Below are positions 1 through 46,768 of a DNA stretch of 64,000 bases, one piece after another. The position numbers were made by a program, and so were the translations under genes. The stretch is from Allacma fusca. Lineage: Eukaryota > Arthropoda > Collembola > Symphypleona > Sminthuridae. A model generated the notes under the pieces. The model saw only the letters and a program-made list of their open reading frames with translations. It was not told where the DNA came from and ran no database searches. Numbering within the stretch: position 1 is the stretch's first letter; every line of letters begins with the position of its first letter. The stretch covers positions 56,182,386 to 56,246,385 of the forward strand of contig OX359248.1 in NCBI GenBank assembly GCA_947179485.1. The letters are read 5' to 3'.

Positions 1-3000
1 CACAATATCACGATATCACAATATCACGATATCTCAATATCACGATATCACAATATCACGATATCACAATATCACGATATCTCAATATCACGATATCACA
101 ATATCACGATATCACAATATCACGATATCTCAATATCACGATATCACAATATCACAATATCACAATATCACGATATCACAATATCACAATATCACGATAT
201 CTCAATATCACGATATCACAATATCACGATATCACAATATCACGATATCACAATATCACGATATCTCAATATCACGATATCTCAATATCACGATATCACA
301 ATATCACGATATCTCAATATCACGATATCACAATATCACAATATCACGATATCTCAATATCACGATATCACGATATCACAATATCACAATATCACGATAT
401 CTCAATATCACGATATCACAATATCACGATATCACAATATCACGATATCACAATATCACGATATCTCAATATCACGATATCACAATATCACGATATCTCA
501 ATATCGCGATATCTCAATATCACGATATCTCAATATCACGATATCTCAATATCACGATATCTCAATATCACGATATCTCAATATCACGATATCTCAATAT
601 CACGATATCTCAATATCACGATATCTCAATATCACGATATCTCAATATCACGATATCTCAATATCACGATATCTCAATATCACGATATCTCAATATCACG
701 ATATCTCAATATCACGATATCTCAATATCACGATATCTCAATATCACGATATCTCAATATCACGATATCTCAATATCACGATATCTCAATATCACGATAT
801 CTCAATATCACGATATCTCAATATCACGATATCTCAATATCACGATATCTCAATATCACGATATCTCAATATCACGATATCTCAATATCACGATATCTCA
901 ATATCACGATATCTCAATATCACGATATCTCAATATCACGATATCTCAATATCACGATATCTCAATATCACGATATCTCAATATCACGATATCTCAATAT
1001 CACGATATCTCAATATCACGATATCTCAATATCACGATATCTCAATATCACGATATCTCAATATCACGATATCTCAATATCACGATATCTCAATATCACG
1101 ATATCTCAATATCACGATATCTCAATATCACGATATCTCAATATCACGATATCTCAATATCACGATATCTCAATATCACGATATCTCAATATCACGATAT
1201 CTCAATATCACGATATCTCAATATCACGATATCTCAATATCACGATATCTCAATATCACGATATCTCAATATCACGATATCTCAATATCACGATATCTCA
1301 ATATCACGATATCTCAATATCACGGTATCTCAATATCACGATATCTCAATATCACGATATCTCAATATCACGATATCTCAATATCACGGTATCTCAATAT
1401 CACGATATCTCAATATCACGATATACCTCAATATCACGGTATCTCAATATCACGATATCTCAATATCACGATATCTCAATATCAGGATATCTCAATATCA
1501 CGATATCTCAATATCACGATATCTCAATATCACGATATCTCAATATCACGATATCTCAATATCACGATATCTCAATATCACGATATCTCAATATCACGAT
1601 GTCTCAATATCACGATATCTCAATATCACGATATCTCAATATCACGATATCTCAATATCACGATGTCTCAATATCACGATATCTCAATATCACGATATCT
1701 CAATATCACGATGTCTCAATATCACGATATCTCAATATCACGATATCTCAATATCACGATATCTCAATATCACGATATCTCAATATCACGATGTCTCAAT
1801 ATCACGATATCTCAATATCACGATGTCTCAATATCACGATATCTCAATATCACGATATCTCAATATCACGATATCTCAATATCACGATATCTCAATATCA
1901 CGATGTCTCAATATCACGATATCTCAATATCACGATGTCTCAATATCACGATATCTCAATATCACGATATCTCAATATCACGATATCTCAATATCACGAT
2001 ATCTCAATATCACGATGTCTCAATATCACGATATCTCAATATCACGATATCTCAATATCACGATATCTCAATATCACGATATCTCAATATCACGATATCT
2101 CAATATCACGATATCTCAATATCACGATATCTCAATATCACGATATCTCAATATCACGATGTCTCAATATCACGATATCTCAATATCACGATATCTCAAT
2201 ATCACGATATCTCAATATCACGATGTCTCAATATCACGATATCTCAATATCACGATATCTCAATATCACGATATCTCAATATCACGATGTCTCAATATCA
2301 CGATATCTCAATATCACGATATCTCAATATCACGATATCTCAATATCACGATGTCTCAATATCACGATATCTCAATATCACGATATCTCAATATCACGAT
2401 GTCTCAATATCACGATATCTCAATATCACGATATCTCAATATCACGATATCTCAATATCACGATATCACAATATCACGATATCTCAATATCACGATATCA
2501 CAATATCACGATATCACAATATCACAATATCACGATATCACAATATCACGATATCACAATATCACGATATCACAATATCACGATATCACAATATCACGAT
2601 ATCTCAATATCACGATATCACAATATCACGATATCACAATATCACGATATCACAATATCACGATATCTCAATATCACGATATCACAATATCACGATATCA
2701 CAATATCACGATATCTCAATATCACGATATCACAATATCACAATATCACAATATCACGATATCACAATATCACGATATCTCAATATCACGATATCACAAT
2801 ATCACAATATCACGATATCTCAATATCACGATATCACAATATCACGATATCACAATATCACGATATCACAATATCACGATATCTCAATATCACGATATCA
2901 CAATATCACGATATCACAATATCACGATATCTCAATATCACGATATCACAATATCACAATATCACAATATCACGATATCACAATATCACGATATCTCAAT

Positions 3001-3208
3001 ATCACGATATCACAATATCACAATATCACAATATCACGATATCACAATATCACGATATCACAATATCACGATATCACAATATCACGATATCACAATATCA
3101 CGATATCACAATATCACGATATCACAATATCACGATATCACAATATCACGATATCACAATATCACGATATCACAATATCACGATATCACAATATCACGAT
3201 ATCAATAA
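1..3208. repeat. 8/16-bp satellite array, EcoRV-site rich
   Basis: The basic unit is 8 bp (ATCACGAT, ATCTCAAT or ATCACAAT), mostly paired into a 16-bp higher-order unit (CACGATATCTCAATAT). The array starts before the window and ends at about 3208. Variants are segregated. About 1-487 mixes CACAAT and CTCAAT units. About 488-1590 is nearly pure CACGAT/CTCAAT. About 1598-2460 is dotted with GATGTC changes. About 2465-3208 is dominated by CACAAT/CACGAT. GATATC (EcoRV) recurs in almost every unit. The plus strand has no stop triplet in any frame, so long artificial ORFs (1599-3269 and others) appear; these are not genes. Confidence 0.97.
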
Positions 3209-11626: not shown

Positions 11627-12780
11627 CACTTGAAAAGTTTCAATTCCAAGTGACACTTGAAAAGTTTCAATTCCAAGTGACACTTGAAAAGTTTCAATTC
11701 CAAGTGACACTTGAAAAGTTTCAATTCCAAGTGACACTTGAAAAGTTTCAATTCCAAGTGACACTTGAAAAGTTTCAATTCCAAGTGACACTTGAAAAGT
11801 TTCAATTCCAAGTGACACTTGAAAAGTTTCAATTCCAAGTGACACTTGAAAAGTTTCAATTCCAAGTGACACTTGAAAAGTTTCAATTCCAAGTGACACT
11901 TGAAAAGTTTCAATTCCAAGTGACACTTGAAAAGTTTCAATTCCAAGTGACACTTGAAAAGTTTCAATTCCAAGTGACACTTGAAAAGTTTCAATTCCAA
12001 GGGGCACTTGAAAAGTTTCAATTCCAAGTGACACTTGAAAAGTTTCAATTCCAAGTGACACTTGAAAAGTTTCAATTCCAAGTGACACTTGAAAAGTTTC
12101 AATTCCAAGTGGCACTTGAAAAGTTTCAATTCCAAGTGACACTTGAAAAGTTTCAATTCCAAGTGGCACTTGAAAAGTTTCAATTCCAAGTGGCACTTGA
12201 AAAGTTTCAATTCCAAGTGACACTTGAAAAGTTTCAATTCCAAGTGACACTTGAAAAGTTTCAATTCCAAGTGACACTTGAAAAGTTTCAATTCCAAGTG
12301 ACACTTGAAAAGTTTCAATTCCAAGTGACACTTGAAAAGTTTCAATTCCAAGTGACACTAAGTTTCAATTCCAAGTGACACTTGAAAAGTTTCAATTCCA
12401 AGCGACACTAAGTTTCAATTCCAAGTGACACTTGAAAAGTTTCAATTCCAAGTGACACTTGAAAAGTTTCAATTCCAAGTGACACTTGAAAAGTTTCAAT
12501 TCCAAGTGACACTTGAAAAGTTTCAATTCCAAGTGACACTTGAAAAGTTTCAATTCCAAGTGACACTTGAAAAGTTTCAATTCCAAGTGACACTTGAAAA
12601 GTTTCAATTCCAAGTGACACTTGAAAAGTTTCAATTCCAAGTGGCACTTGAAAAGTTTCAATTCCAAGTGGCACTTGAAAAGTTTCAATTCCAAGTGGCA
12701 CTTGAAAAGTTTCAATTCCAAGTGGCACTTGAAAAGTTTCAATTCCAACCAAGTGACACTTGAAAAGTTTCAATTCAAGT
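11627..12780. repeat. 27-bp minisatellite, about 42 units
   Basis: The unit is CACTTGAAAAGTTTCAATTC plus CAAGTGA. Most units differ only at the junction (GACACTTG, GGCACTTG or one GGGCACTTG). Two shortened units with the CTTGAAA part lost occur near 12355 and 12408. Because 27 is divisible by 3, long frames appear on both strands; none is a gene. Each unit holds two inverted repeats, TTGAAA-AG-TTTCAA and, across the unit junction, CAAGTG-A-CACTTG, so single strands could form serial hairpins. Confidence 0.97.
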
Positions 12781-29449: not shown

Positions 29450-29893
29450 TTAAAGTATAAACTTAGAATATGTCCATTCAATCCAATGGTTTAATTTTGT
29501 CTTGTATATGATTTGTATGATATGTATATGAGCAACAGCCGATTTCTTGCAGTTGTTCTTTTCTACATGCTTCTTATGAACAATAATTCTGGCTTCTAAA
29601 GGTTGTCCTGTTTCTCCAATGTATACTAAATGGCATGAACCACAATTTATACAGTATATTCCTCCCATTTTCAATTCTTCGTGATCCTTAACACTATTTA
29701 AAAAATTCTTAATTTTGATACCAGGAGTAAATATAGGTTTCCATTTAAATGTCCTGTGGAAGAGATTTGCAATATTGCTGGAAGCCGAACCAAAGTAAGG
29801 AATATAAACCCATCTTTGTTTTTTAGTTTGACTTTCTTCCATAATAATATTATCGATAACGTCATCGATTCGACTTTCTTCTCCTTCACACAT
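29450..29893 (-). CDS. GIY-YIG endonuclease domain of a Penelope-like element
   Basis: A 147-residue minus frame. Near residue 77 it has GGIYCINCGSCHLVYIGETG, an exact GIY...YIG pair with the glycine context and a CxxC, followed by LEARIIVHKKHVEKN. This is the C-terminal nicking domain of Penelope-like retroelements. The frame starts in a linker (ESQTKKQRWVYIPYFGSASS, then FHRTFKWKPIFTPG). Upstream, reverse-transcriptase sequence stops after the fingers region and the palm with its catalytic aspartates is missing, so the element is internally deleted. Confidence 0.85.
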   Translation of the reverse strand: MCEGEESRIDDVIDNIIMEESQTKKQRWVYIPYFGSASSNIANLFHRTFKWKPIFTPGIKIKNFLNSVKDHEELKMGGIYCINCGSCHLVYIGETGQPLEARIIVHKKHVEKNNCKKSAVAHIHIIQIIYKTKLNHWIEWTYSKFIL

Positions 29894-31060
29894 TTGAATA
29901 TTTGGATTAATGTTAATTAATACAATACTAATTATTAATTACAAATTCGCGGGAATTCTGTACCGAAGTTGGAACATCTCGATTGCAGTATGAAATGAAT
30001 TCGTTCAAATTTCTGGCTAGTTTGTGATATAATGATCATATGTAGATATTAATGGTTCTCAAAGGTAAATCGTTTATGTGAATTTTCGGTAAACCGAAAA
30101 CCTTGGGTATTCGAGGATAGTAATTATATATATCATGAAACCGTTCAGATGACATCCTATTTTTACTCTTTAGTTTCTTGCATGTATGGTGAAAGTCGAT
30201 TTGAGGTTGGTCAATAGGATCATTGTGATGTAATGTATACGGTCCGGATTCAAGCATTGAATTTATTTGTTGTTCGTAATCAATTTTATCCAATAGAACA
30301 GTGGCATTTCCTTTATCTCCAGAAAGGATAACTAGTTTCTTGTTTTCTCGTCACTTCTTCATTGTTCTAAGAATATTAACTTCATTTTTGTTACTTTGAT
30401 TATTCTTAATAATACGGAATAGTTTTCTTCTTATAATTTCTCTGTCAACTTAATCAGCATTATCATCAGAAAATTCGGATTCAATTGTTGCGATAAATCT
30501 TAATTGTAGTTCTTCCCTTTGCTTGTTTGAAGGAGGTACAGCAAAATTGAGTCCGAGTCCCAAAACATAAAGCTCATCTTTTGATGGGTGACATTTACTT
30601 AGATGGATTACTGTATCACATCTGGTGTCAATATTTGGATTATTTATCTGTTCGTTTAGTGTAACTATTGTCTTCGTTATTAAACTGTTTAATTTATGGA
30701 TATGTTTGTCACGAACTTTTTGAAAACAAAAATTGTAATCGTAGTCGGCGTATTATAAAATTCTAGCATAAATATTATGGAAGTTCGGATAGTTCCAATT
30801 TGTTTGATTCGACAGAATTGATTTGTCTTTTAAGTTGTCATTCAACAGTTTTGGTCACATTTGTTAGTAATTTCTTCGGATTTTTGTGTAATAACTACAA
30901 TCTGCATCTTTAAGAAACTGGGAATAACATTAAATAACTTACACTTAATATAATAAATAATATAAAATATAATATCATTCCTTATGTGTAGTAATTTTTT
31001 ATTATTCTTTTCTAAACTTAATATATTATGTACATAATTCATAATAATAAATAATTATGT
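29894..31060 (-). pseudogene. Penelope-like reverse transcriptase N-terminal part, decayed
   Basis: Minus frame 30293-30036 contains YYPRIPKVFGLPKIH followed by NDLPLR, the signature 'GLPKIHK...PLRPIV' block of Penelope reverse transcriptase. Further upstream pieces to about 31042 align in order with the second copy at 45430-46830, sharing the motif SFLKxQIV/SFLKIKI near the N-terminus. Multiple stops. The RT palm is absent. Confidence 0.8.
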
Positions 31061-31879: not shown

Positions 31880-32520
31880 GATTAATAATTAAGATTAACG
31901 ATTACTTTCAAAATAATTTTTATCGATGATTACAATTAACGATTACTTTAGAAATATTATTCACTGATGTTTACAATTAACGATTACTTTAGAAATATTA
32001 TTCACTGATGTTTACAATTAACGATTACTTTAGAAATATTATTCACTGATGTTTACAATTAACGATTACTTTAAAAATAATTTTCATTGTTAATTAAAAC
32101 AAACGATTACTTTAGAAATTATTTTCATTGATGATTACAATTAACGATTACTTTAGAAATTATTTTCATTGATGATTACAATTAACGATTACTTTAGAAA
32201 TAATTTTCATTGTTGATTACAATTAACGATTACTTTAGAAATAATTTTCATTGTTGATTACAATTAACGATTACTTTAGAAATAATTTTCATTGTTGATT
32301 ACAATTAACGATTACTTTAGAAATAATTTTTACTGTTGATTAAAATTAACGATTACTTTAGAAACAATTTTCATTGATGATTACAATTAACGATTACTTC
32401 GAATATAATTTTCACTGATGATTACAATTAACTATTACTTCGAATATAATTTTCAGTGATGATTACAATTAACGGTTACTTTAAAAATAATTTTCACTGA
32501 TGATTACAATTAACTATTAA
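31880..32520. repeat. 41-bp minisatellite inside the hAT element, about 15 units
   Basis: The unit is TACAATTAACGATTACTTTAG-like followed by AAATAATTTTCATTGTTGAT. At least three variants (ATTATTCACTGATGTT, ATTTTCATTGATGAT, ATTTTCATTGTTGAT) occur in runs, showing local amplification. The ATTAACGATTA core is also present at both ends of the element. Confidence 0.92.
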
Positions 32521-37375: not shown

Positions 37376-37380
37376 AAATC
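37376..37380. repeat. Target-site duplication AAATC, left
   Basis: Identical to 44998-45002 on the other side of the copia element. Confidence 0.95.
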
Positions 37381-37477
37381 TGTGAGATGTATGTACCTAA
37401 AGCATAGCATTCCATTGTATGTATATATATTTAATTGTGTATGAAGCTCAAAGTCCATTGATTAAAGGACCAAAAAA

Positions 37478-37511
37478 GGATCAAAGTCCACCTATAATTG
37501 GACTTTGATCC
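37478..37511. promoter_or_regulatory. Perfect hairpin in the LTR U3
   Basis: GGATCAAAGTCCA, 8-nt loop, TGGACTTTGATCC. A further half-copy (AAGTCCATTGATTAAAGGAC) lies just upstream, so AAAGTCC boxes are repeated. Possible regulatory protein site; also present in the 3' LTR at 44772-44805. Confidence 0.7.
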
Positions 37512-37563
37512 CATTAAAAACCTATCAATACTATACTAATTAGATCTTAATTCACTCCTCAAG

Positions 37564-37573
37564 TATAAAAAGG
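37564..37573 (+). promoter_or_regulatory. LTR TATA box
   Basis: TATAAAAAGG in U3, at a usual distance from a start site near 37594. Confidence 0.7.
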
Positions 37574-37703
37574 GGCCTAAAAAGCCTGAATAAATACAGT
37601 CTTCTGTCACTATTGAAAAACTCAAAATCCTCTGTAGTTGTCTAAATTTACTTCTCATCAGCATAAAATCACTTTTGCCTTCATACAAACACTTTTACTC
37701 TCA

Positions 37704-37718
37704 TGGTAGCATAGAGCG
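37704..37718 (+). promoter_or_regulatory. Primer-binding site
   Basis: TGGTAGCATAGAGCG begins directly after the LTR. TGG pairs with a tRNA CCA end and TGGTAGCA matches the 3' end of initiator-Met-type tRNAs for the first eight bases. The exact tRNA cannot be fixed from the window. Confidence 0.65.
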
Positions 37719-37890
37719 TTGGTTCGATTGAAAACATTGGACTTAACTCTGAGATTGCCTGAGACTTATCCCGTATCAACTCATTACTAATTACACTATT
37801 ACAGGTTCCAGCGAGTAATTATACTCACAGTCAGCCCAACACAGAAGAACCAGCCTACCAGCCCAAAAGTATTCGACAAGGCATAAAACC

Positions 37891-38040
37891 CATATATGGG
37901 CAAAGATTTAACCGGGAGAAATATCCAAGCCATATAGGGGCGAAGATTCAACCGGGTGAAATATCCAAGCCATATAGGGGCGAAGATTCAACCGGGTGAA
38001 ATATCCTAACCATATAGGGGCGAAGATTCGACTTGGAGGG
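37891..38040 (+). repeat. 40-bp tandem repeats in the copia leader
   Basis: Units start at 37891, 37931, 37971 and 38011 (partial), each CATATAGGGGCGAAGATTCA followed by ACCGGGTGAAATATCCAAGC. GGGGCGAAG recurs once more at about 38077. They are in the untranslated leader between the primer-binding site and gag, where packaging or translation signals usually lie. Confidence 0.9.
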
Positions 38041-38112
38041 GCAAGACTATACTTTCAAGGCACTACCAAATTGTAAAGGGGCGAAGCGGAACTACTCAGG
38101 ATACCAACCAAC

Positions 38113-38913
38113 ATGCAGAAACGCACAAAACTTACGCAAATTGAAAAATTAAACGGATCAAACTATTTAACTTGGAAGTTAATGGTTTCAACCATCCTAC
38201 GAGCTAGTGGCCACTGGAACGTTACAGCCGGAACCGAGGGGCGACCTGACGAAATCGATGAACCAGATGAAGCTGCCGCTTGGGATAAGAGGGATGTAGA
38301 GGTGGAGAGTCCATGATCCTTCCCACACTGGAGAAACGGCAGCTGATTCACGTGGCCCAATGCCAAACATCATGTGAGGTCTGGGATAGGTTGGAAAACT
38401 TAAATTCGGATTACTCCATCTTGAATAAACAACAAACACTGGCAAAATTCCTAAATTATGAGATCGGACAAGATCAGCTCTTGGTCGACGCCTACATGGA
38501 GCTTGAGGAAATTTGGAGATCTTTACTGGATATAGGAGTCTCCATGGATGAATCCACAGTTGTAACCAAGATTACCAACTGTATGCCAACTTAATGCTTT
38601 CAAAAAGGCATGGGACTCGGTGGCTCCAAGCTCCCAAACTATGGCACAACTACTAGTCAGACTAAAGAAGGAACATTTGGAGCACATCGACACAAGGAAG
38701 GGTGAGAAAGCTACTAGTGCTAAAGCTTTTCACACAGATCAGGTTAAGACGCCACATCAGGCAGGAACCTGGAATGACCAACAGCAACAGAAAAGGCAGA
38801 TCAAATGCTTTAATTGCGGTAAAATTGGTCATATAAAACGAGATTGCCGGTCAGCACAAAAGGTAAATACAGACCATGGAAACAGATCGGGACAACCAAA
38901 GGCCTTCATGGGG
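38113..38913 (+). pseudogene. gag: copia Gag, two compensating frameshifts
   Basis: ATG 38113 starts a Gag of the UBN2/copia type: LTQIEKLNGSNYLTWKLMVS near the start, then (other frame, 38313-38594) a segment with LIHVAQCQTSCEVWDRLENL. The first frame resumes with AFKKAWDS. A CCHC zinc knuckle, CFNCGKIGHIKRDC, is at 38806-38847 and would bind element RNA in the particle. One base appears lost near 38300-38316 and one gained near 38585-38600, so the middle third is out of frame. Gag is fused in frame to pol, as in copia. Confidence 0.9.
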
Positions 38914-40300
38914 AAAGGATCAATTCAACCTCCCCTGGATATTGAATGGATATTAGACTCTGTGTCAACGGGACACATTTGTGGAGATATCCGGATGTTC
39001 TCATCATTTGAGAAATTTCAAGAACCGCACCCAGTCTACCTTACAACTCGCAATTCAGTAAATGCAGAAGGTAAAGGTACTGTGACGGTTAAAGCAGCTA
39101 TTGGTACTCATTGGGAGACCATGGAAATAAGTGATGTACTATTCATCCCGGGCGCTGCTAATCTCTTTTCCGAATTTAGAATGGCAAAAGAGGGATACAA
39201 AATTGTACGTGACGAGATTGGGGTGAAGTACTACCGAGATCGGAGTTTGGGACCCTCGGCAGAACAAAAGGAAGGCCTGTATATAATGAAATTTCGCCCC
39301 ATAAGTCAAGAAACCCACGCCATGATGGCGGACCCAAGGATGTCAAACCTATGGCATCGACGGTTGAATCACATCAATACGATGTATATTCAAGAAACCG
39401 TACTAAAGGGTGCAGTCAAGGGTATTGCCCTGGACGATTTCCAGGATAGGATTCATTGTGAATCCTGTGAAATCGGGAAACAAACCCGAAAACCGTTTCC
39501 CCGGAAACAGACACCGAGATCAACTAAAATAGGTGAAGTGATTCACACAGACCTTGCAGAAAAAATTCCAGTTCCCACAATAGGAGGAGCTAACTATTTT
39601 CTCCTAATCAAAGATGAGGCTACAGGTTTTCGAATGGCCTATTTTCAAAAAAGGAAGGATGAAACTGCCGAAAATCTGATGGAATTTATAAGATTCATCG
39701 AAACCCAGACGGGTACCAAGGTAAGAAAATTTATCTCTGACAACGGGACTGAATTCGTAAATCTAAAACTCGAATTATTCTTCTCCGAACGAGGCATTAT
39801 TCATCAAACAAGTGCACCATATTGCCCCGAATCTAATGGGCGAATTGAACGAGAAATCCGGACAATCAAAGATTGCGCCAGGACTATAATCTTAGAAGCA
39901 GGCGTTCCCGAATACCTATGGGGAGAAGCAGTAGCAACCACCGTCTACATACCTAATAGAGTACTTGATAAACAAAGCGAAGATAAGACTGCCTTCGAGA
40001 AATAATTTGGGAGAAAACCATCGCTAGATCATCTGCGTGTTTTTGGAAGCACAGCATATGTTCATATCCCGGATCCAAAAAGAACCACCTTTGATCCAAA
40101 AGGTGCCAAATACATTATGGTGGGATACCCTGCTTTTGGTAGAAAATATCGACTTTATAACGAAAAAAATCACCAGATCATAGAAGCTAGAGATGTCAAC
40201 TTCCACGAAGACCTATCTAATCAAGGAAGCATCCCTGTTACTAACAATGACGAAAGTACAAGTTCAGACAATGCAGCGGCTGGGACTAGTACTAGTAATA
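38914..40300 (+). pseudogene. pol: copia protease and integrase, with a stop codon
   Basis: Protease: WILDSVSTGHICGD with the catalytic Asp codon at 38956-38958; the usual Asp-Ser-Gly reads Asp-Ser-Val here. Integrase: zinc domain with LWHRRLNHIN and CESC (39457-39468), catalytic triad Asp 39550, Asp 39739 (FISDNGTEF) and Glu 39829 (CPESNGRIERE), then GAKYIMVGYP and the linker DVNFHEDLS. TAA at 40003-40005 interrupts the frame in the C-terminal part; sequence on both sides (TAFEK, then RKPSLDHLRVFGSTAYVH) is normal copia integrase, so it is a simple nonsense change. Integrase inserts the cDNA and would make the 5-bp duplication. Confidence 0.92.
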
Positions 40301-42093
40301 ACAAAAATACAGTAGCACCAGCCTCAGGCTATAATAGCGACAATGATTCCGGATCCGACAGCGTCTGCCCAGAAGACTACCTTACAGAAGACGAATTCTT
40401 GATGACAAATGACGAATCAGAAACTGGAAAACCAATTTCAAGTAAAATCCCACCTAAACCAGGACTCCTGAACAAACTGAACCCTAAAAACCTGTTCGAC
40501 AAAACAAGGTTAAGGGATAGGTCCACATTGCAACCACCCAACAGATACCAAGCACTTTTTAGTAACAGCAATCAAGAACCAAATAATTACGAAGAATCAC
40601 AACAAGCTCCTGATAAGAACAAATGGCTCGAAGCCATGAATCAAGAAATGATCAGCCATGAACAAAATAACACCTGGAACTTGGTACCTAAACCGAAAAA
40701 TACCAAAATTCTTGACAGTCGCTGGGTATATAAAATAAAGCAGAATACCAACGGAACAGACCAATTTTACAAAGCAAGACTAGTAATAAAAGGATATCGG
40801 CAAAAATATGGTATTGATTACCTAGAAACATTTGCCTCTGTATGCCGGTATGAGTCAATCAGACTACGTTTATGTCTCGCTACCATGTTTAATATGGTAA
40901 TGCAGCAATTTGACGTTAAAACAGCCTTCCTATACGGAGACCTGGAAGAAGATATTTATATGAGACAACCCGAGGGATTCTTAAATGGAGATGAGAACCT
41001 TGTTTGTAAACTTAACAAAAGTTTGTATGGACTCAAACAATCGCCAAGATGTTGGAATCAAAAATTCACCAAATTCCTGAGCGATTTTAATTTACAAAGA
41101 ACCTCATGTGACCACAGTGTTTACGTTGGAACAATCAAGAACAGAATCGTATACTTGGCATTATACGTGGATGACGGACTTATTATCTCAGAAAATAACG
41201 AGGCTATCTCTCAAGTTATCAATGAAATACAAAAACTGTTTGAAATCAAAACTGGAGATGTAAGTACATACGTTGGACTAGAAATACGACAAGAAGCAAG
41301 AACTGGAACAATCAATATTGCCCAAACTGCATATATCAAATCCTTGTTGGAAAATTACAACATGGCAGATTGTAAAATAGCCAACGTACCAATGCAACCC
41401 AATTTGGATCTGGTTCCGAGTCTGCAACCAGATGAATCATTGCCATACAGGCAACTCATTGGCTCACTCCTATTTTTGGCTAAATGTACTCGCCCTGACA
41501 TCTCTTATGCAGTCTCTAAGTTATCTCAATTTCTACACGCCTTCGACAACAGCCACTGGATAGAAGCCAAATACATCTTGAGGTACTTGAAAGGAACCAT
41601 GCACCTCAGTATAAAGTATAAACAGAACCCCAATTCTGAACTTATTGGATACTCTGACTCGGATTACGCTGGAGATAAACTTCAAAGGAAATCAACCAGC
41701 GGATATGTATTCTTATTGGGAAATGGAGCTATAAGTTGTTCCAGCCAAAAACAGCCTGTCGTGGCTGTATCATCAACAGAAGCGGAATACATAGCCCTAG
41801 CTTTAGCAGCTAGGGAATCCACATGGCTCCGAAGATTTTTGGGTGAACTAGGTCATCCCATGACATCAACGATACCAATTTGGGTTGATAACCAAAGCAC
41901 GATTAGACTTGCCAAGAATCCAGAAATGCACAATCGTACAAAGCATATAGATGTACGTTATCATTTTGCAAGAGACTTGGTGACAACTAATGAAATTCGA
42001 GTAGAATACGTACCTACACATGATCAACTAGCTGATGGATTAACAAAACCACTATCCCGAGCAAAACTTCTGGAATCAAGGGAAGGATTAGGA
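40301..42093 (+). CDS. pol: copia reverse transcriptase and RNase H
   Basis: Intact frame. An acidic, Ser-rich linker (about 40250-40500) leads to RT: KWLEAMNQEM, SRWVYKIKQ, QFDVKTAFLYGDLEEDIYM (first catalytic Asp), KLNKSLYGLKQSPRCWNQKF, and the catalytic box LYVDDGLII (YVDD from 41164). The RT/RH connection has CTRPDISYAVSKLSQF. RNase H: GYSDSDYAGDKLQRKSTSGY, SSTEAEYIALALAARE, WVDNQSTIRLAKNP and LADGLTKPL. All catalytic residues I can place are present. No stop separates it from the envelope-like region. Confidence 0.96.
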
Positions 42094-43911
42094 ATGACAT
42101 CAGCTGAAGAAATAAACCCAAAGAAAACATGGACATCCACAATTTACTTATCTATTTGGACAGCTATCATTACCATTATATCCCTCCCAACCTTGGCATT
42201 TTCAAAAATCACAAATAAGACAACTCTAAAACCTCCAGCAAACAATCAACAACTAAGCTCAATATGGTTTTCAATAACTCCAACAAACAACCAACAACTA
42301 AGCTCGATATGGTTTTTATTTTTGCTAATCATATTGATTCCCATAAATATAAGAGCCGTTCAACAAGAAGAAATCCAGATACTTTGGCTTAAAAGTGAAA
42401 ATCAAATCACAACTGGACATACTCAGGTAGCTCTGGCAATAAAATTTATAAGTCCATGCGAAATACTAACGCAGGACAAAATTGACTCAGGACTACTCCC
42501 ATTTGCAAAAGAACAATGTACCCAAATGTATAACGATATATTTATCCGACAACTGGAACTAATAAGTCCTACCAAATATAAACACAAAAATTTGATAAGA
42601 GAGAAACGTGTTGTTGAACGAGCAATAAATCGTGCCATAGTTGGAATTTCTGCAATCATTGTAGCATGTATGGGTCTAGGAGTTTTTGGACATACAGCGT
42701 ACACATCAAATCAATATCCAAGCCCAGGTGCGTATGATCAAATGATCGCGGATCACCGCAACGAAATACGGACACTAGAACAAAGGTACCTCCAAAACAC
42801 GGAAGCAATTAAACGACTTCAGCAAGATTTTAAAACTGCCATGGATAGCTTGTCAATACATCAAAAGGACTTCGACGAAATTAAAAATAAACTGATAAGC
42901 ACTAACTACGCTATCTCATTTATAACCAATCGATTAATGATTGGAAGAGACATAATTAAAGAAACACATCGGGACTGGGAAAATGGAAACATCAATCCAA
43001 ATTTCTTTGACTTCCTAAATTACTCCAAAATTTGCCAACCACCTAACTACTGTCCTGGAGGAAAACCCCAACAATGCTCACTATCTGAAAATAAAGATAT
43101 CATATACATGGATTTCTCAATACCATATATATCAAAAGATAATATATTGATGGAAGCAGACCCGTTTAACTTCATGATGAAGACAGAAAATGATACATGT
43201 AAGCTTGTGTACACCGGACCAGTAAATGCCATCATTCAACTAGGAACCAACTGTGTGCTCGACACCAATTTAGAATATTCAAAAAATTCAAAACTAGTTC
43301 TTCCAAAATCCGATCAATGTCTTCCCAAAGAAGCAATACAAGGAAAGGTATATTACACAGTGAAAGAATGCAGACCCAGTTACCCATTTGACTTTCGTCA
43401 ATTCGTACAACTAAAACCATTCCATGGCAAGTACTACATATATTGTCCAGGTTAAAACTTAACCACAGGACATAAAACAGACACATGCCCTGACGAAGTC
43501 TTTACCCTTCCAATAACCGCAACCTTCAAAATTAACAACATTGAGTATACAGGCCATTTAACTGAAATCTTCCACATAGTAAAACCTGAGCCAATTTTTT
43601 CTGCTCAGATTAACTGGGTATTACAACCCACAATCAATTGGACCAGCTTGATTACATCTGTATCTCAAGCTAATGAATCAACATATATTCTACAATCACT
43701 ATACCCGAGAGTTGAATATGCCCATCCATTCTTTTGGACTACTACAACGGGAATAACTAAAATAATAATACTGGCCATTATTATTGTAATATGTATCTGG
43801 AAAATTTGCCAATCAAAACGAGTAATCACAATCCGACCAAGAATACGTCGACAACGTCCAATAGAATTAGCATCAATCTTTGAAGGAGAAGAGGCAATTA
43901 ACTACTACTAA
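42094..43911 (+). pseudogene. env: Envelope-like glycoprotein in frame after RNase H, one stop codon
   Basis: From the Met codon at 42094 the pol frame continues for about 604 residues, interrupted by TAA at 43453-43455 and ending at TAA 43909-43911. Order of parts: two N-terminal hydrophobic stretches (about 42130-42200 and 42310-42350, signal-like); a presumed surface domain; a furin-type site REKR at 42598-42609; a hydrophobic glycine-containing segment (about 42632-42690, fusion-peptide-like); a charged heptad coiled-coil region (about 42750-42920); a cysteine-rich region (PNYCPGGKPQQC and others); a C-terminal membrane anchor (about 43750-43805); and a basic tail. N-glycosylation sites include NYS, NDT, NLT, NWT. 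This is the layout of class I fusion envelopes such as those of errantiviruses, not of any copia protein. How it is expressed (fusion, splicing) is unknown. Confidence 0.8.
42241..42330 (+). repeat. 45-bp tandem duplication in the env signal region
   Basis: AACAATCAACAACTAAGCTC at 42241 is repeated with one change at 42286, giving NNQQLSSIWF twice, 15 residues apart. The second copy runs straight into the longer hydrophobic stretch. Confidence 0.85.
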
Positions 43912-43923
43912 AACTCTCCAAAC

Positions 43924-43998
43924 TTTCGTTTTGTTTCTGTTTTTGTTTTGTGTTTTTGTTTTGTTTTTGTTTGTTGTTTTTTTAAACGAAATTATTAG
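43924..43998 (+). promoter_or_regulatory. T-rich tract with possible splice acceptor
   Basis: A 60-bp run of GTTTT-like repeats followed by TTATTAG/GG (AG at 43997-43998). On RNA this is a strong polypyrimidine tract and 3' splice site pattern, placed between the end of env and the accessory ORF. A function in making a spliced mRNA for the ORF at 44337 is inferred only from position. Confidence 0.4.
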
Positions 43999-44336
43999 GG
44001 ATTTAACGACTAGAAATCTCTCCGCCACTAATTCTCTATGGACTAGACATCTCTAATTAAAATTTATTTTTCACAAATATTTCACCCTAGTGCTTACCAG
44101 TAACTTGACCAATATAAAATGCTTCACATAACTACTAGCCGGCAACTTGACCAAACCAAGGGTACTGCCAGTCCTTAAGATAGTATTCTTCCTCACATAA
44201 TCAAACGTAATTTCGATATCCTAAATTGTATTTTTCTTCTTGAAAGTTTTTCCATATCTCAAACAAAAATACGCTTTTAATGAGTATGGAAACGTATAAA
44301 AATGTCTGAATTTACTCTCCTAAACATCATACAACA

Positions 44337-44642
44337 ATGGGAGTTCCACATCGAAATTTCTCGGAGGAGCAACCACCTCTGGACGAACTTGTGGAAGAAT
44401 TCCCACACAGGCAGGAGTACATCATCATCGATCTTGTAAGCAGCGGAGAAGAAGACGATACAAGTGACGAGGAGAACCAGTCCGAGCCGGATGTCATCGA
44501 CCAGTACGAGCCGGATTTCATTAACGACGAAGACGAAGTTACCTTGCCGTGGCCCCCGCCATCACCACCTGCGCCGGTCTCCGATGAAGAGGAACCAATA
44601 GAAGATGGGGGACCAGAAGAAAAAAGACCAAGGATGGAATAA
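44337..44642 (+). CDS. Acidic accessory protein with SUMO-interaction-like motif
   Basis: Intact 101-residue ORF between env and the 3' polypurine tract; start context AACAATGG is optimal (A at -3, G at +4). Residues 27-34 EYIIIDLV followed by SSGEEDDTSDEE form a textbook SUMO-interacting motif (hydrophobic core plus Ser and acidic tail). Residues 71-80 (PWPPPSPPAP) are proline-rich with PxxP. KRPR at 96-99 is a possible nuclear signal. About a quarter of residues are Asp or Glu. The gene is clearly GC-richer than the rest of the element, which hints at separate origin. Copia elements normally have no such gene; no homologue is known to me. A GTAAGC inside it (44436) could also be a splice donor. 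Confidence 0.7.
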   Translation: MGVPHRNFSEEQPPLDELVEEFPHRQEYIIIDLVSSGEEDDTSDEENQSEPDVIDQYEPDFINDEDEVTLPWPPPSPPAPVSDEEEPIEDGGPEEKRPRME

Positions 44643-44661
44643 TATAAGAATCCTCAAACAC

Positions 44662-44674
44662 AATTAAGGGAAGG
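44662..44674 (+). promoter_or_regulatory. Polypurine tract
   Basis: AATTAAGGGAAGG abuts the 3' LTR, the normal primer for plus-strand DNA synthesis. Confidence 0.85.
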
Positions 44675-44997
44675 TGTGAGATGTATGTACCTAAAGCATA
44701 GCATTCCATTGTATGTATATATATTTAATTGTGTATGAAGCTCAAAGTCCATTGATTAAAGGACCAAAAAAGGATCAAAGTCCACCTATAATTGGACTTT
44801 GATCCCATTAAAAACCTATCAATACTATACTAATTAGATCTTAATTCACTCCTCAAGTATAAAAAGGGGCCTAAAAAGCCTGAATAAATACAGTCTTCTG
44901 TCACTATTGAAAAACTCAAAATCCTCTGTAGTTGTCTAAATTTACTTCTCATCAGCATAAAATCACTTTTGCCTTCATACAAACACTTTTACTCTCA
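44675..44997 (+). repeat. 3' LTR of the copia element
   Basis: 323 bp, same sequence as 37381-37703 by eye, including TATA box (44858) and AATAAA (44883). Confidence 0.97.
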
Positions 44998-45002
44998 AAA
45001 TC
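44998..45002. repeat. Target-site duplication AAATC, right
   Basis: Matches 37376-37380. Removing the element restores a continuous flank. Confidence 0.95.
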
Positions 45003-45132: not shown

Positions 45133-45310
45133 GCTTATGAATTGAATGAAACTAAATGATTTGATTCAATTCAGCTTATGAATTGAATGAAACTAAATGA
45201 TTTGATTCACTTCAGCATATGAACTGAATGAAACTAAATGATTTGATTCAATTCAGCTTATGAAATGAATGAAACTAAATGATTTGATTCAATTCACGAT
45301 TCACAGGCGT
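45133..45310. repeat. 41-bp tandem repeat, fragment of the GATTCAATTC hAT family
   Basis: About four units of AGCTTATGAATTGAATGAAA followed by CTAAATGATTTGATTCAATTC. Sequence running on (TTCAATTCACGATTCACAGG) matches the reverse complement of the subterminal region of the hAT element at 62997-63859, so this is a fragment of that family with an expanded repeat. Confidence 0.7.
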
Positions 45311-45429: not shown

Positions 45430-46768
45430 TCGCATTCTTTCAATTGTATGGTACTGTTTTCTTGAAGTAACCTCTTTTCAATATCTTGAAGATAAATATC
45501 GGCAATTGTACCTGATATTGGACTTGGACTAACGAAACATCATTTATCTGTGATTTTATTTCTGAATTGAAATTATGTATTTTTGTGCGTATTTCCAGCA
45601 GAATTTCGAAACCTTCAATAGATAATCCGGTATTTGTTTCTCTTTTCCACTCAGTATTTGACAGTAATCGTTCTATGACTACTCTTCTAGCTTCTTCTAT
45701 TGGTACATTAGTAAATAGTGATTCGACATCAAAAGAGACCATAATTGCTTCGTGTGGAATTATAAGAATAATTAATTTAATTACAAATTCGTGGGAGTTC
45801 TTGACGGACGTTGGAATATCATGATTACAGTATGAAATGAACTTGTTTAATTCACGTGCTAATTTTGTACGTTCCTGTTTGAATCATTTAATCAATTTTA
45901 TTTTCGTAGTCAGTTTTATCCATTAGAACAGTAGAATTTCCTTTGTCAGCAGGAATAATGACTAGTTACTTATGTTCTCTTAATTTCCTCATTGTCCTAA
46001 GAATTATTGTTTCATGTTTATCACTTTGATTATTTCTTATCGTGCGAACTACTTTTCTTCTTATAATTTCTCTGTCAAGTTGATCAATATTATCGTAAGA
46101 AAATTCAGATACAATTGTTGCAATAGATTTTAATGAAGTTCTTTTCCTAGTTTCCTCGATTGATATACAGAAAAATTAACTTCAAGGCCCAAGATACGTA
46201 ATTCATCATTTGTTGGGAGGTAGCTGATTAGATTAACCACTGTTTCATTTCCGTTGTCAGTAACAGGTTTGTAAAGTTTTCGATTGGCTTCAGAATTGTC
46301 CTGTTTCTTAAATTGTTTAATTTGTGAATATGTTTGCCACGAACGTTTTGAAACCGAGTTGCAAGCGTATTATGTGTATTCTAAGATTTTACTGTAACTG
46401 TTTTCAGGTAGTACAGACAGTTCTATTTTGCTTGAATCGACATCACGTTCAATTTGCTTAAGTTGAATATATTTAATTTTGAGGTTCTCTTTTAATAATG
46501 TTCTCTTAGATTTGTTAATAATTTCTTTAGCCTTTTGTATACTAACTATTATCTTAATCTTTAAGAAACTGGGAATAATATCAAATAATTTAAACTTCCG
46601 TAAAAAGATATCATTTTTCAGGTGTAGTAATTTCTAATTATTATTTTTGCAACGTCATACTTTATGTATATAATTCAAACCAAATTGAATGTTTATAGAT
46701 TTTTTAAGTCCTTTCCATCCACAAGTGTAATTATTTTTCGTATTTAAGTTGGTTTCACTGGAAACCAT
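45430..46768 (-). pseudogene. Penelope-like reverse transcriptase, 3'-truncated
   Basis: Minus strand, ATG at 46768 (MVSSETNLNTKNNY) through decayed N-terminal sequence. An open frame at 45742-45440 starts MVSFDVESLFTNVPIEEARR: this is RT motif A of Penelope elements ('SFDVxSLFTNVP') with its catalytic Asp. The following block, which should hold motif B, is mutated, and the sequence ends before the YADD box. Shares N-terminal and terminal motifs with 29105-31060. Confidence 0.85.

What the first reader, a model, noticed from the sequence alone, without database searches (positions are those of the whole stretch)
37381..44997. A very young copia retrotransposon carrying an envelope-like gene
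Seen: copia-order pol whose frame runs without a stop from RNase H into a protein with signal-like segments, an REKR site, fusion-peptide-like stretch, coiled coil, cysteine-rich region and C-terminal membrane anchor, all inside identical LTRs with a 5-bp duplication. Known: envelope genes are typical of errantivirus (gypsy) and some BEL elements, and envelope-like genes in the copia group are described mainly from plants (Sirevirus-type). An animal copia lineage with a class I-type envelope would be an independent gain and a candidate enveloped retroelement.
Basis: partly seen in the sequence, partly recalled or inferred. Interest (0 to 1): 0.92.

Follow-up and report, generated by a model that had tools for sequence, protein, structure and literature searches.

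The report
Copia retrotransposon carrying viral envelope gene
A jumping gene of the copia group in a likely springtail genome carries, joined to its polymerase gene, a gene predicted to make a virus-type membrane-fusion envelope protein; related versions of that gene, changing under purifying selection in the two families measured, lie at more than a hundred other places in the same genome, so this copia lineage would likely spread between cells as retroviruses do.

Summary
The element is real: identical 323-bp LTRs, 5-bp duplication AAATC, copia-order pol, then an envelope-type gene in the pol frame. This copy is damaged: gag changes frame twice, integrase and env each hold one TAA, and the protease motif reads DSVSTG. 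So '42094-43911' is two pieces, and young does not mean intact.

The envelope is no private fusion. In the window's own genome 114 of 150 scored copia RTs have an env match within 5 kb downstream; three of the other 36, read as controls, also had one. Homologues follow copia pol in Folsomia candida, Allacma fusca and metagenome contigs. Env is under purifying selection (dN/dS 0.13-0.16 in this family, 0.08 in another), as is pol. RT and env trees share their deep split, fitting one acquisition. Sequence libraries do not recognise the protein, but predicted models match viral class I fusion glycoproteins.

Many copies keep a stop-free frame of about 1,900-2,200 aa, and 4 of 14 loci lack any Met ahead of mature env, so Env is likely made from a polyprotein or a spliced mRNA. 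Infectivity is inferred, not shown. Eight answered literature searches found no animal copia with such a gene.

The parts
37376..37380 (.). target-site duplication AAATC, left
37381..37703 (+). 5' LTR, 323 bp
   Evidence: 0 of 323 differences to the 3' LTR
37704..37718 (+). primer-binding site TGGTAGCATAGAGCG, initiator-tRNA-Met-like (label recalled)
   Evidence: directly after the 5' LTR
38113..38594 (+). gag, start and core, in two frames (broken)
   Evidence: ATG 38113; Retrotran_gag_2 1.5e-10 on 38289-38591
38566..40005 (+). gag end (CCHC), protease region with DSVSTG, gag-pre-integrase, integrase; ends in TAA 40003
   Evidence: zf-CCHC 1.7e-7, Pol_BBD 6.4e-16, gag_pre-integrs 2e-12, rve 7.2e-11
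40006..42090 (+). integrase end (SH3 domain), reverse transcriptase, RNase H (RNase H by motif, recalled)
   Evidence: SH3_retrovirus 1.4e-26, RVT_2 5e-71
42091..43452 (+). env piece 1: linker, signal-like segment, F2-like part, REKR 42598-42609, fusion-peptide-like stretch, long helix, beta-rich domain
43453..43455 (+). TAA inside env
43456..43911 (+). env piece 2: rest of ectodomain and C-terminal membrane anchor (hydrophobic peak about 43753-43809), with its stop
44337..44642 (+). fourth ORF, 101 aa, acidic, with its stop
   Evidence: whole in 4 of 8 family copies
44666..44674 (+). polypurine tract AAGGGAAGG
   Evidence: directly before the 3' LTR
44675..44997 (+). 3' LTR, 323 bp
44998..45002 (.). 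target-site duplication AAATC, right

Best explanation
This is a recently inserted but damaged copy of a Ty1/copia retrotransposon whose pol frame continues into an envelope-type gene that is predicted to fold as a paramyxovirus-F-like class I fusion glycoprotein and would likely let intact members of the lineage leave and enter cells as retroviruses do. Shown: the anatomy; pol-env order in a clade of copia elements of this genome, in Folsomia, in Allacma and in metagenome contigs; purifying selection on env in two families; a shared deep split of RT and env trees. Predicted: the fold, cleavage at the conserved R-x-K-R, fusion peptide, coiled coil and membrane anchor. Inferred: the clade's ancestor captured a fusion glycoprotein gene once, probably from a virus of arthropods. 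Inferred: Env is translated with Gag-Pol in one polyprotein whose internal signal sequence sends the C-terminal part into the ER (about 55:45 against a spliced mRNA that borrows an upstream AUG), is cut by host furin and is displayed on budding particles.
For: Pol-env proteins of Folsomia candida, Allacma fusca and three metagenome records match across the pol-env boundary, and 16 more env homologues were found. In the own genome 127 merged env loci; 114 of 150 scored RVT_2 places have one within 5 kb downstream on the same strand. dN/dS of env 0.13-0.16 (pol 0.11-0.12) between the window copy and six family copies, 0.08 (pol 0.06) between L045 and L046. 12 cysteine columns and the last Arg of the cleavage site conserved in 33 env rows. 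Models match viral fusion glycoproteins: 21 of 26 BFVD matches at E<=0.001 are so named, 50 of 50 listed PDB rows are paramyxo- or pneumovirus F. RT clade of 26 env-bearing rows, 100/97; the env tree has the same deep split, 100/100. Recent spread: LTR pairs 98.8-100% alike in this family, three 448-bp pairs identical in another. 4 of 14 junctions lack any Met.
Confidence: 0.78

Rival explanations
1. The env product is a conserved membrane protein used for something other than entry of particles, for example blocking reinfection, fusing neighbouring cells or loading vesicles, and the elements spread only by retrotransposition inside cells.
For: No particle or infection data exist here; the fold does not show function (note).
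Against: Furin-type site, hydrophobic stretch after it, long helix, 12 conserved cysteine columns and anchor are kept together across lineages; env is constrained nearly as strongly as pol.
Confidence: 0.15
2. The env is a passenger: captured once, carried along, and no longer used.
For: Several copies, this one included, have broken env frames.
Against: dN/dS 0.08-0.16 between families and subfamilies; 25 matches in stop-free frames of 2144-2147 aa and 11 in frames of 1958 aa.
Confidence: 0.04
3. Chance fusion or assembly error private to this copy.
For: This copy is damaged and its env is split.
Against: 127 merged env loci in the genome, homologues in other springtails and metagenomes, similar RT and env trees.
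Confidence: 0.01

Closest known systems
TelKA LTR elements of bdelloid rotifers (PMC5408684; passages and section 3.2 read)
   Same: LTR element with a roughly 600-aa env most similar to paramyxovirus F: furin site, fusion peptide, coiled coil, cysteines, C-terminal anchor.
   Different: TelKA is one of the retrovirus-like lineages of that paper, with env as a separate ORF3 and a clear Pfam/HHpred match; here pol is copia-type, env shares the pol frame, and Pfam sees no F protein.
Errantiviruses, insect endogenous retroviruses with env-F (PMC12992720, passages)
   Same: Env with signal peptide, furin site, fusion peptide, conserved cysteines and anchor; baculovirus F is among the nearest folds here.
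   Different: Gypsy-type pol and env-F from a spliced ORF; here copia-type pol and one frame.
Sireviruses such as SIRE-1, plant copia elements with an envelope-like ORF (search listings and cited titles only)
   Same: Copia pol with an extra ORF after it.
   Different: Plants; the viral origin of that ORF is stated as unclear in PMC5408684 (passage). Homology to the present env was not tested.
Lispivirus glycoproteins, baculovirus F, paramyxovirus F
   Same: Nearest predicted or solved folds; Sanxia water strider virus 4 is Lispiviridae.
   Different: Only about 5-14% identity in the listed alignments; no donor lineage can be named.

Membership tests
Pseudoviridae / Ty1-copia | integrase upstream of a copia-type RT | tested here: met
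   rve on 38566-40002, SH3 and RVT_2 on 40006-42090
Pseudoviridae / Ty1-copia | copia-type gag and CCHC knuckle | tested here: met
   Retrotran_gag_2 1.5e-10, zf-CCHC 1.7e-7
Pseudoviridae / Ty1-copia | LTRs and 5-bp target duplication | tested here: met
   three copies of another family
Pseudoviridae / Ty1-copia | RT inside the copia clade against gypsy, BEL and retrovirus outgroups | not tested
   trees held copia-type rows only
Viral class I fusion glycoproteins (F type) | signal, furin-type site, hydrophobic stretch after it, long helix, C-terminal anchor | tested here: met
   sequence features (R-x-K/R-R in 27 of 33 rows in the scanned range; last Arg in 33 of 33); helix
Viral class I fusion glycoproteins (F type) | F-like fold | tested here: met
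   predicted models; moderate confidence
Viral class I fusion glycoproteins (F type) | Pfam Fusion_gly (PF00523) above its cut-off | tested here: not met
   best 0.03 in 1 of 7 members; none at E<=1 in 9 further proteins
Viral class I fusion glycoproteins (F type) | trimer and membrane-fusion activity | not testable with these tools
   needs the bench
Errantivirus | gypsy-type pol (RT before integrase) | tested here: not met
   order is integrase then RT
Sirevirus | RT inside the plant Sirevirus clade | not tested
   no labelled Sirevirus row was in the trees

The most novel reading that the evidence does not exclude
Springtails harbour a retrovirus lineage born from Ty1/copia: one old capture of a negative-strand RNA-virus fusion glycoprotein gave enveloped, still spreading copia elements that make up most of a genome's copia content and make Gag, Pol and Env as one polyprotein with an internal signal sequence, an organisation not known from retroviruses (recalled).
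Probability: 0.4. Interest if true: 0.94.

Novelty: new variant of a known kind. Interest (0 to 1): 0.86.

Why it matters
Retroviruses are thought to arise when an LTR retrotransposon gains an envelope gene. In the papers seen, such gains are told of gypsy-type and retrovirus-like elements in animals, while envelope-like genes of copia elements are told of plants. Here copia appears to have done it in an animal, with many recent copies in one genome, so capture, expression and selection of an envelope can be compared across independent origins. The single pol-env frame raises a testable question of how Env is made.

Tried and rejected
Env piece 1 alone against 5.8 billion proteins: nothing at E<=1; the fused frame as length guide was needed. 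IMG/VR scan: nothing. PDB by sequence: chance or coiled-coil matches. Pfam: no match over a cut-off in env; the strongest were ABC2_membrane_3 2.7e-5 on the anchor region of P0083, DUF7365 (coiled coil) 1.5e-4 in P0082, Pre-PUA 0.00066, TLV_coat 0.0061, BDV_G 0.011, Fusion_gly 0.03, each in one protein. The first RT tree counted P0005 as env-less by mistake, hence 2 changes. The second tree labelled L081-L083 env-less, as controls; reading them showed env in all three, so its count of 4 changes and its one-clade test that rejects (p-AU 8.6e-70) rest on a wrong label and were not rerun. No env-less copia of this genome was found, but 33 of the 36 RT places without a listed env were not read. 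Splice-acceptor scan inconclusive: 13 sites against 9.2 in codon shuffles, 52 of 500 as high. The chance of a stop-free junction computed is not used, because the script picked rows by their open frame. Host species: P0005 against the own genome did not complete.

Literature: answered searches (copia, envelope, Collembola: 0 papers) listed no paper on an animal copia with a viral envelope; one search asked for the Allacma genome. The library is open-access only and calls itself without bioRxiv. Seen as passages: PMC5408684 (section 3.2 whole), PMC12440569, PMC11599104, PMC8672886 (says env is occasionally found in Gypsy; nothing on copia env), PMC8220671, PMC12693562, PMC2774666, PMC12992720; PMC3587641 has no 'env' or 'envelope' as whole words. 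All other papers only as listings.

Full report
What is there. The window holds one LTR element at 37381-44997. Its LTRs are 323 bp and identical, begin TG, end CA, and are flanked by AAATC on both sides. TGGTAGCATAGAGCG follows the 5' LTR and AAGGGAAGG precedes the 3' LTR. Pfam finds copia gag, a CCHC knuckle, Pol_BBD, gag-pre-integrase, rve, the SH3 retroviral domain and RVT_2, in copia order. The frame 40006-43452 runs through RT and RNase H into a further protein with a signal-like segment, REKR and a hydrophobic stretch; after a TAA at 43453 the frame goes on for 151 residues with a C-terminal anchor.

What is broken. The copy is recent but not intact. Gag changes frame twice, the integrase has a TAA at 40003, env has a TAA at 43453, and the protease motif reads DSVSTG. 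Of seven other family copies, six have no stop in env piece 1 and one has two (a ninth, split copy, L009/L010, was not compared). Three lie in open frames of 1937-1941 aa. Their LTR pairs are 98.8-100% identical over 275 to 376 bp, the 275 being cut by the end of the stretch. The family is recent as a whole, and this copy is one of its damaged members.

The env is conserved. Alone it found nothing. As part of the pol frame it found 76 proteins at E<=10; five match beyond RNase H into env: one of Folsomia candida (33% over the whole scored part), one of Allacma fusca and three metagenome proteins; the rest cover only 8-21% of the query. A profile then found 16 env homologues. In the window's own genome (392.7 Mb, 91 contigs, unnamed) the env piece scored 93 matches and the env of a second family 74. 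Merged these are 127 loci, and 114 of 150 scored RVT_2 places have one within 5 kb downstream on the same strand. Of the 36 without, I read three as controls and all three carried env; 33 were not read. Counts are lower bounds, since the tool scores only its best candidates (150 of 221 for RVT_2).

High-copy lineages. Twenty-five matches lie in stop-free frames of 2144-2147 aa and eleven in frames of 1958 aa. Three copies of the 2146-aa family have identical 448-bp LTRs and different 5-bp duplications (ATAAT, CATGC, GTAAC; read off). In the copy at C1:3282554 the open frame begins about 530 nt after the 5' LTR and holds about 1,090 residues before the RT, room for gag, protease and integrase (arithmetic). 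Metagenome proteins P0002 and P0003 have gag, rve, RVT_2 and env in one chain.

Selection. Between the window copy and six family copies, env piece 1 has dS 0.245-0.260 and dN 0.035-0.040 (ratio 0.13-0.16); the 1,500 nt of pol before it give 0.11-0.12. Among the near-identical copies themselves env ratios, where defined, range from 0.26 to 1.64 on very few changes, which says little. Between L045 and L046 env is 0.08 and pol 0.06; five other pairs were saturated at silent sites.

History. In the RT tree the 23 rows of this genome plus P0002, P0003 and P0005 form one clade (26 rows, 100/97), and each of those rows carries env sequence; the 30 other copia rows, all hits, showed no env match there (three rows were mislabelled in it, see Tried and rejected). 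The env tree has the matching deep split (100/100) and the same groups L037-L039, L043-L082, L031-L041 and L033 with L042 and L081. L036, L038 and L040 sit differently in the two trees, with weak support on at least one side. One capture followed by joint inheritance is the simplest reading. Allacma is Symphypleona; Folsomia belongs to another order (recalled), so the lineage is old in Collembola or has moved between them. The host is likely a springtail; its species was not established.

How Env would be made. In the 14 loci read, which the script chose by their open frame, the stretch from the TKPL motif to mature env has no Met at all in 4. Env of those copies cannot start on an AUG of its own there, so it would come from a polyprotein or a spliced mRNA. 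Long single frames recur, and acceptor-like sites are not clearly enriched, so I lean to the polyprotein with an internal signal, about 55:45.

Fourth ORF. A 101-aa acidic reading frame ends just before the 3' LTR; it is whole in four of eight family copies, a remnant in one, and not found in three. Between subfamilies dN is 0.24 at dS 1.8, which suggests it is coding, though silent sites are near saturation.

Known or not. The closest precedent is TelKA of bdelloid rotifers, a retrovirus-like element with a paramyxovirus-F-type env (PMC5408684, section 3.2). Kojima 2025 names envelope gains by Errantivirus and Anakin and, in the passages seen, none by copia (PMC12440569). The searches named in Tried and rejected listed no animal copia with a viral envelope.

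Noticed in passing
44337-44642: Fourth ORF, acidic, ending in EEKRPRME, just before the polypurine tract; whole in 4 of 8 family copies, seemingly dispensable in others.
   Followed up: partly
37887-38032: Three 40-bp direct repeats in the leader between 5' LTR and gag; possible packaging or regulatory signal.
   Followed up: no
42228-42316: A 44-45-bp direct repeat duplicates NNQQLSSIWF in the env linker; the repeated peptide is also in the family copies L002-L007.
   Followed up: no
3-3203; 11627-12780; 31894-32519; 45133-45296: Tandem arrays with 16-, 27-, 41- and 41-bp units.
   Followed up: no
29450-29938 (-) and 45440-45883 (-): A GIY-YIG-like fragment (0.0011, below cut-off) and an RT-like fragment that look like Penelope-type remnants (label recalled).
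   Followed up: no
L083, L045-L047; P0004, P0079: A deeply separate env branch shared by this genome and metagenome contigs of unknown host.
   Followed up: partly
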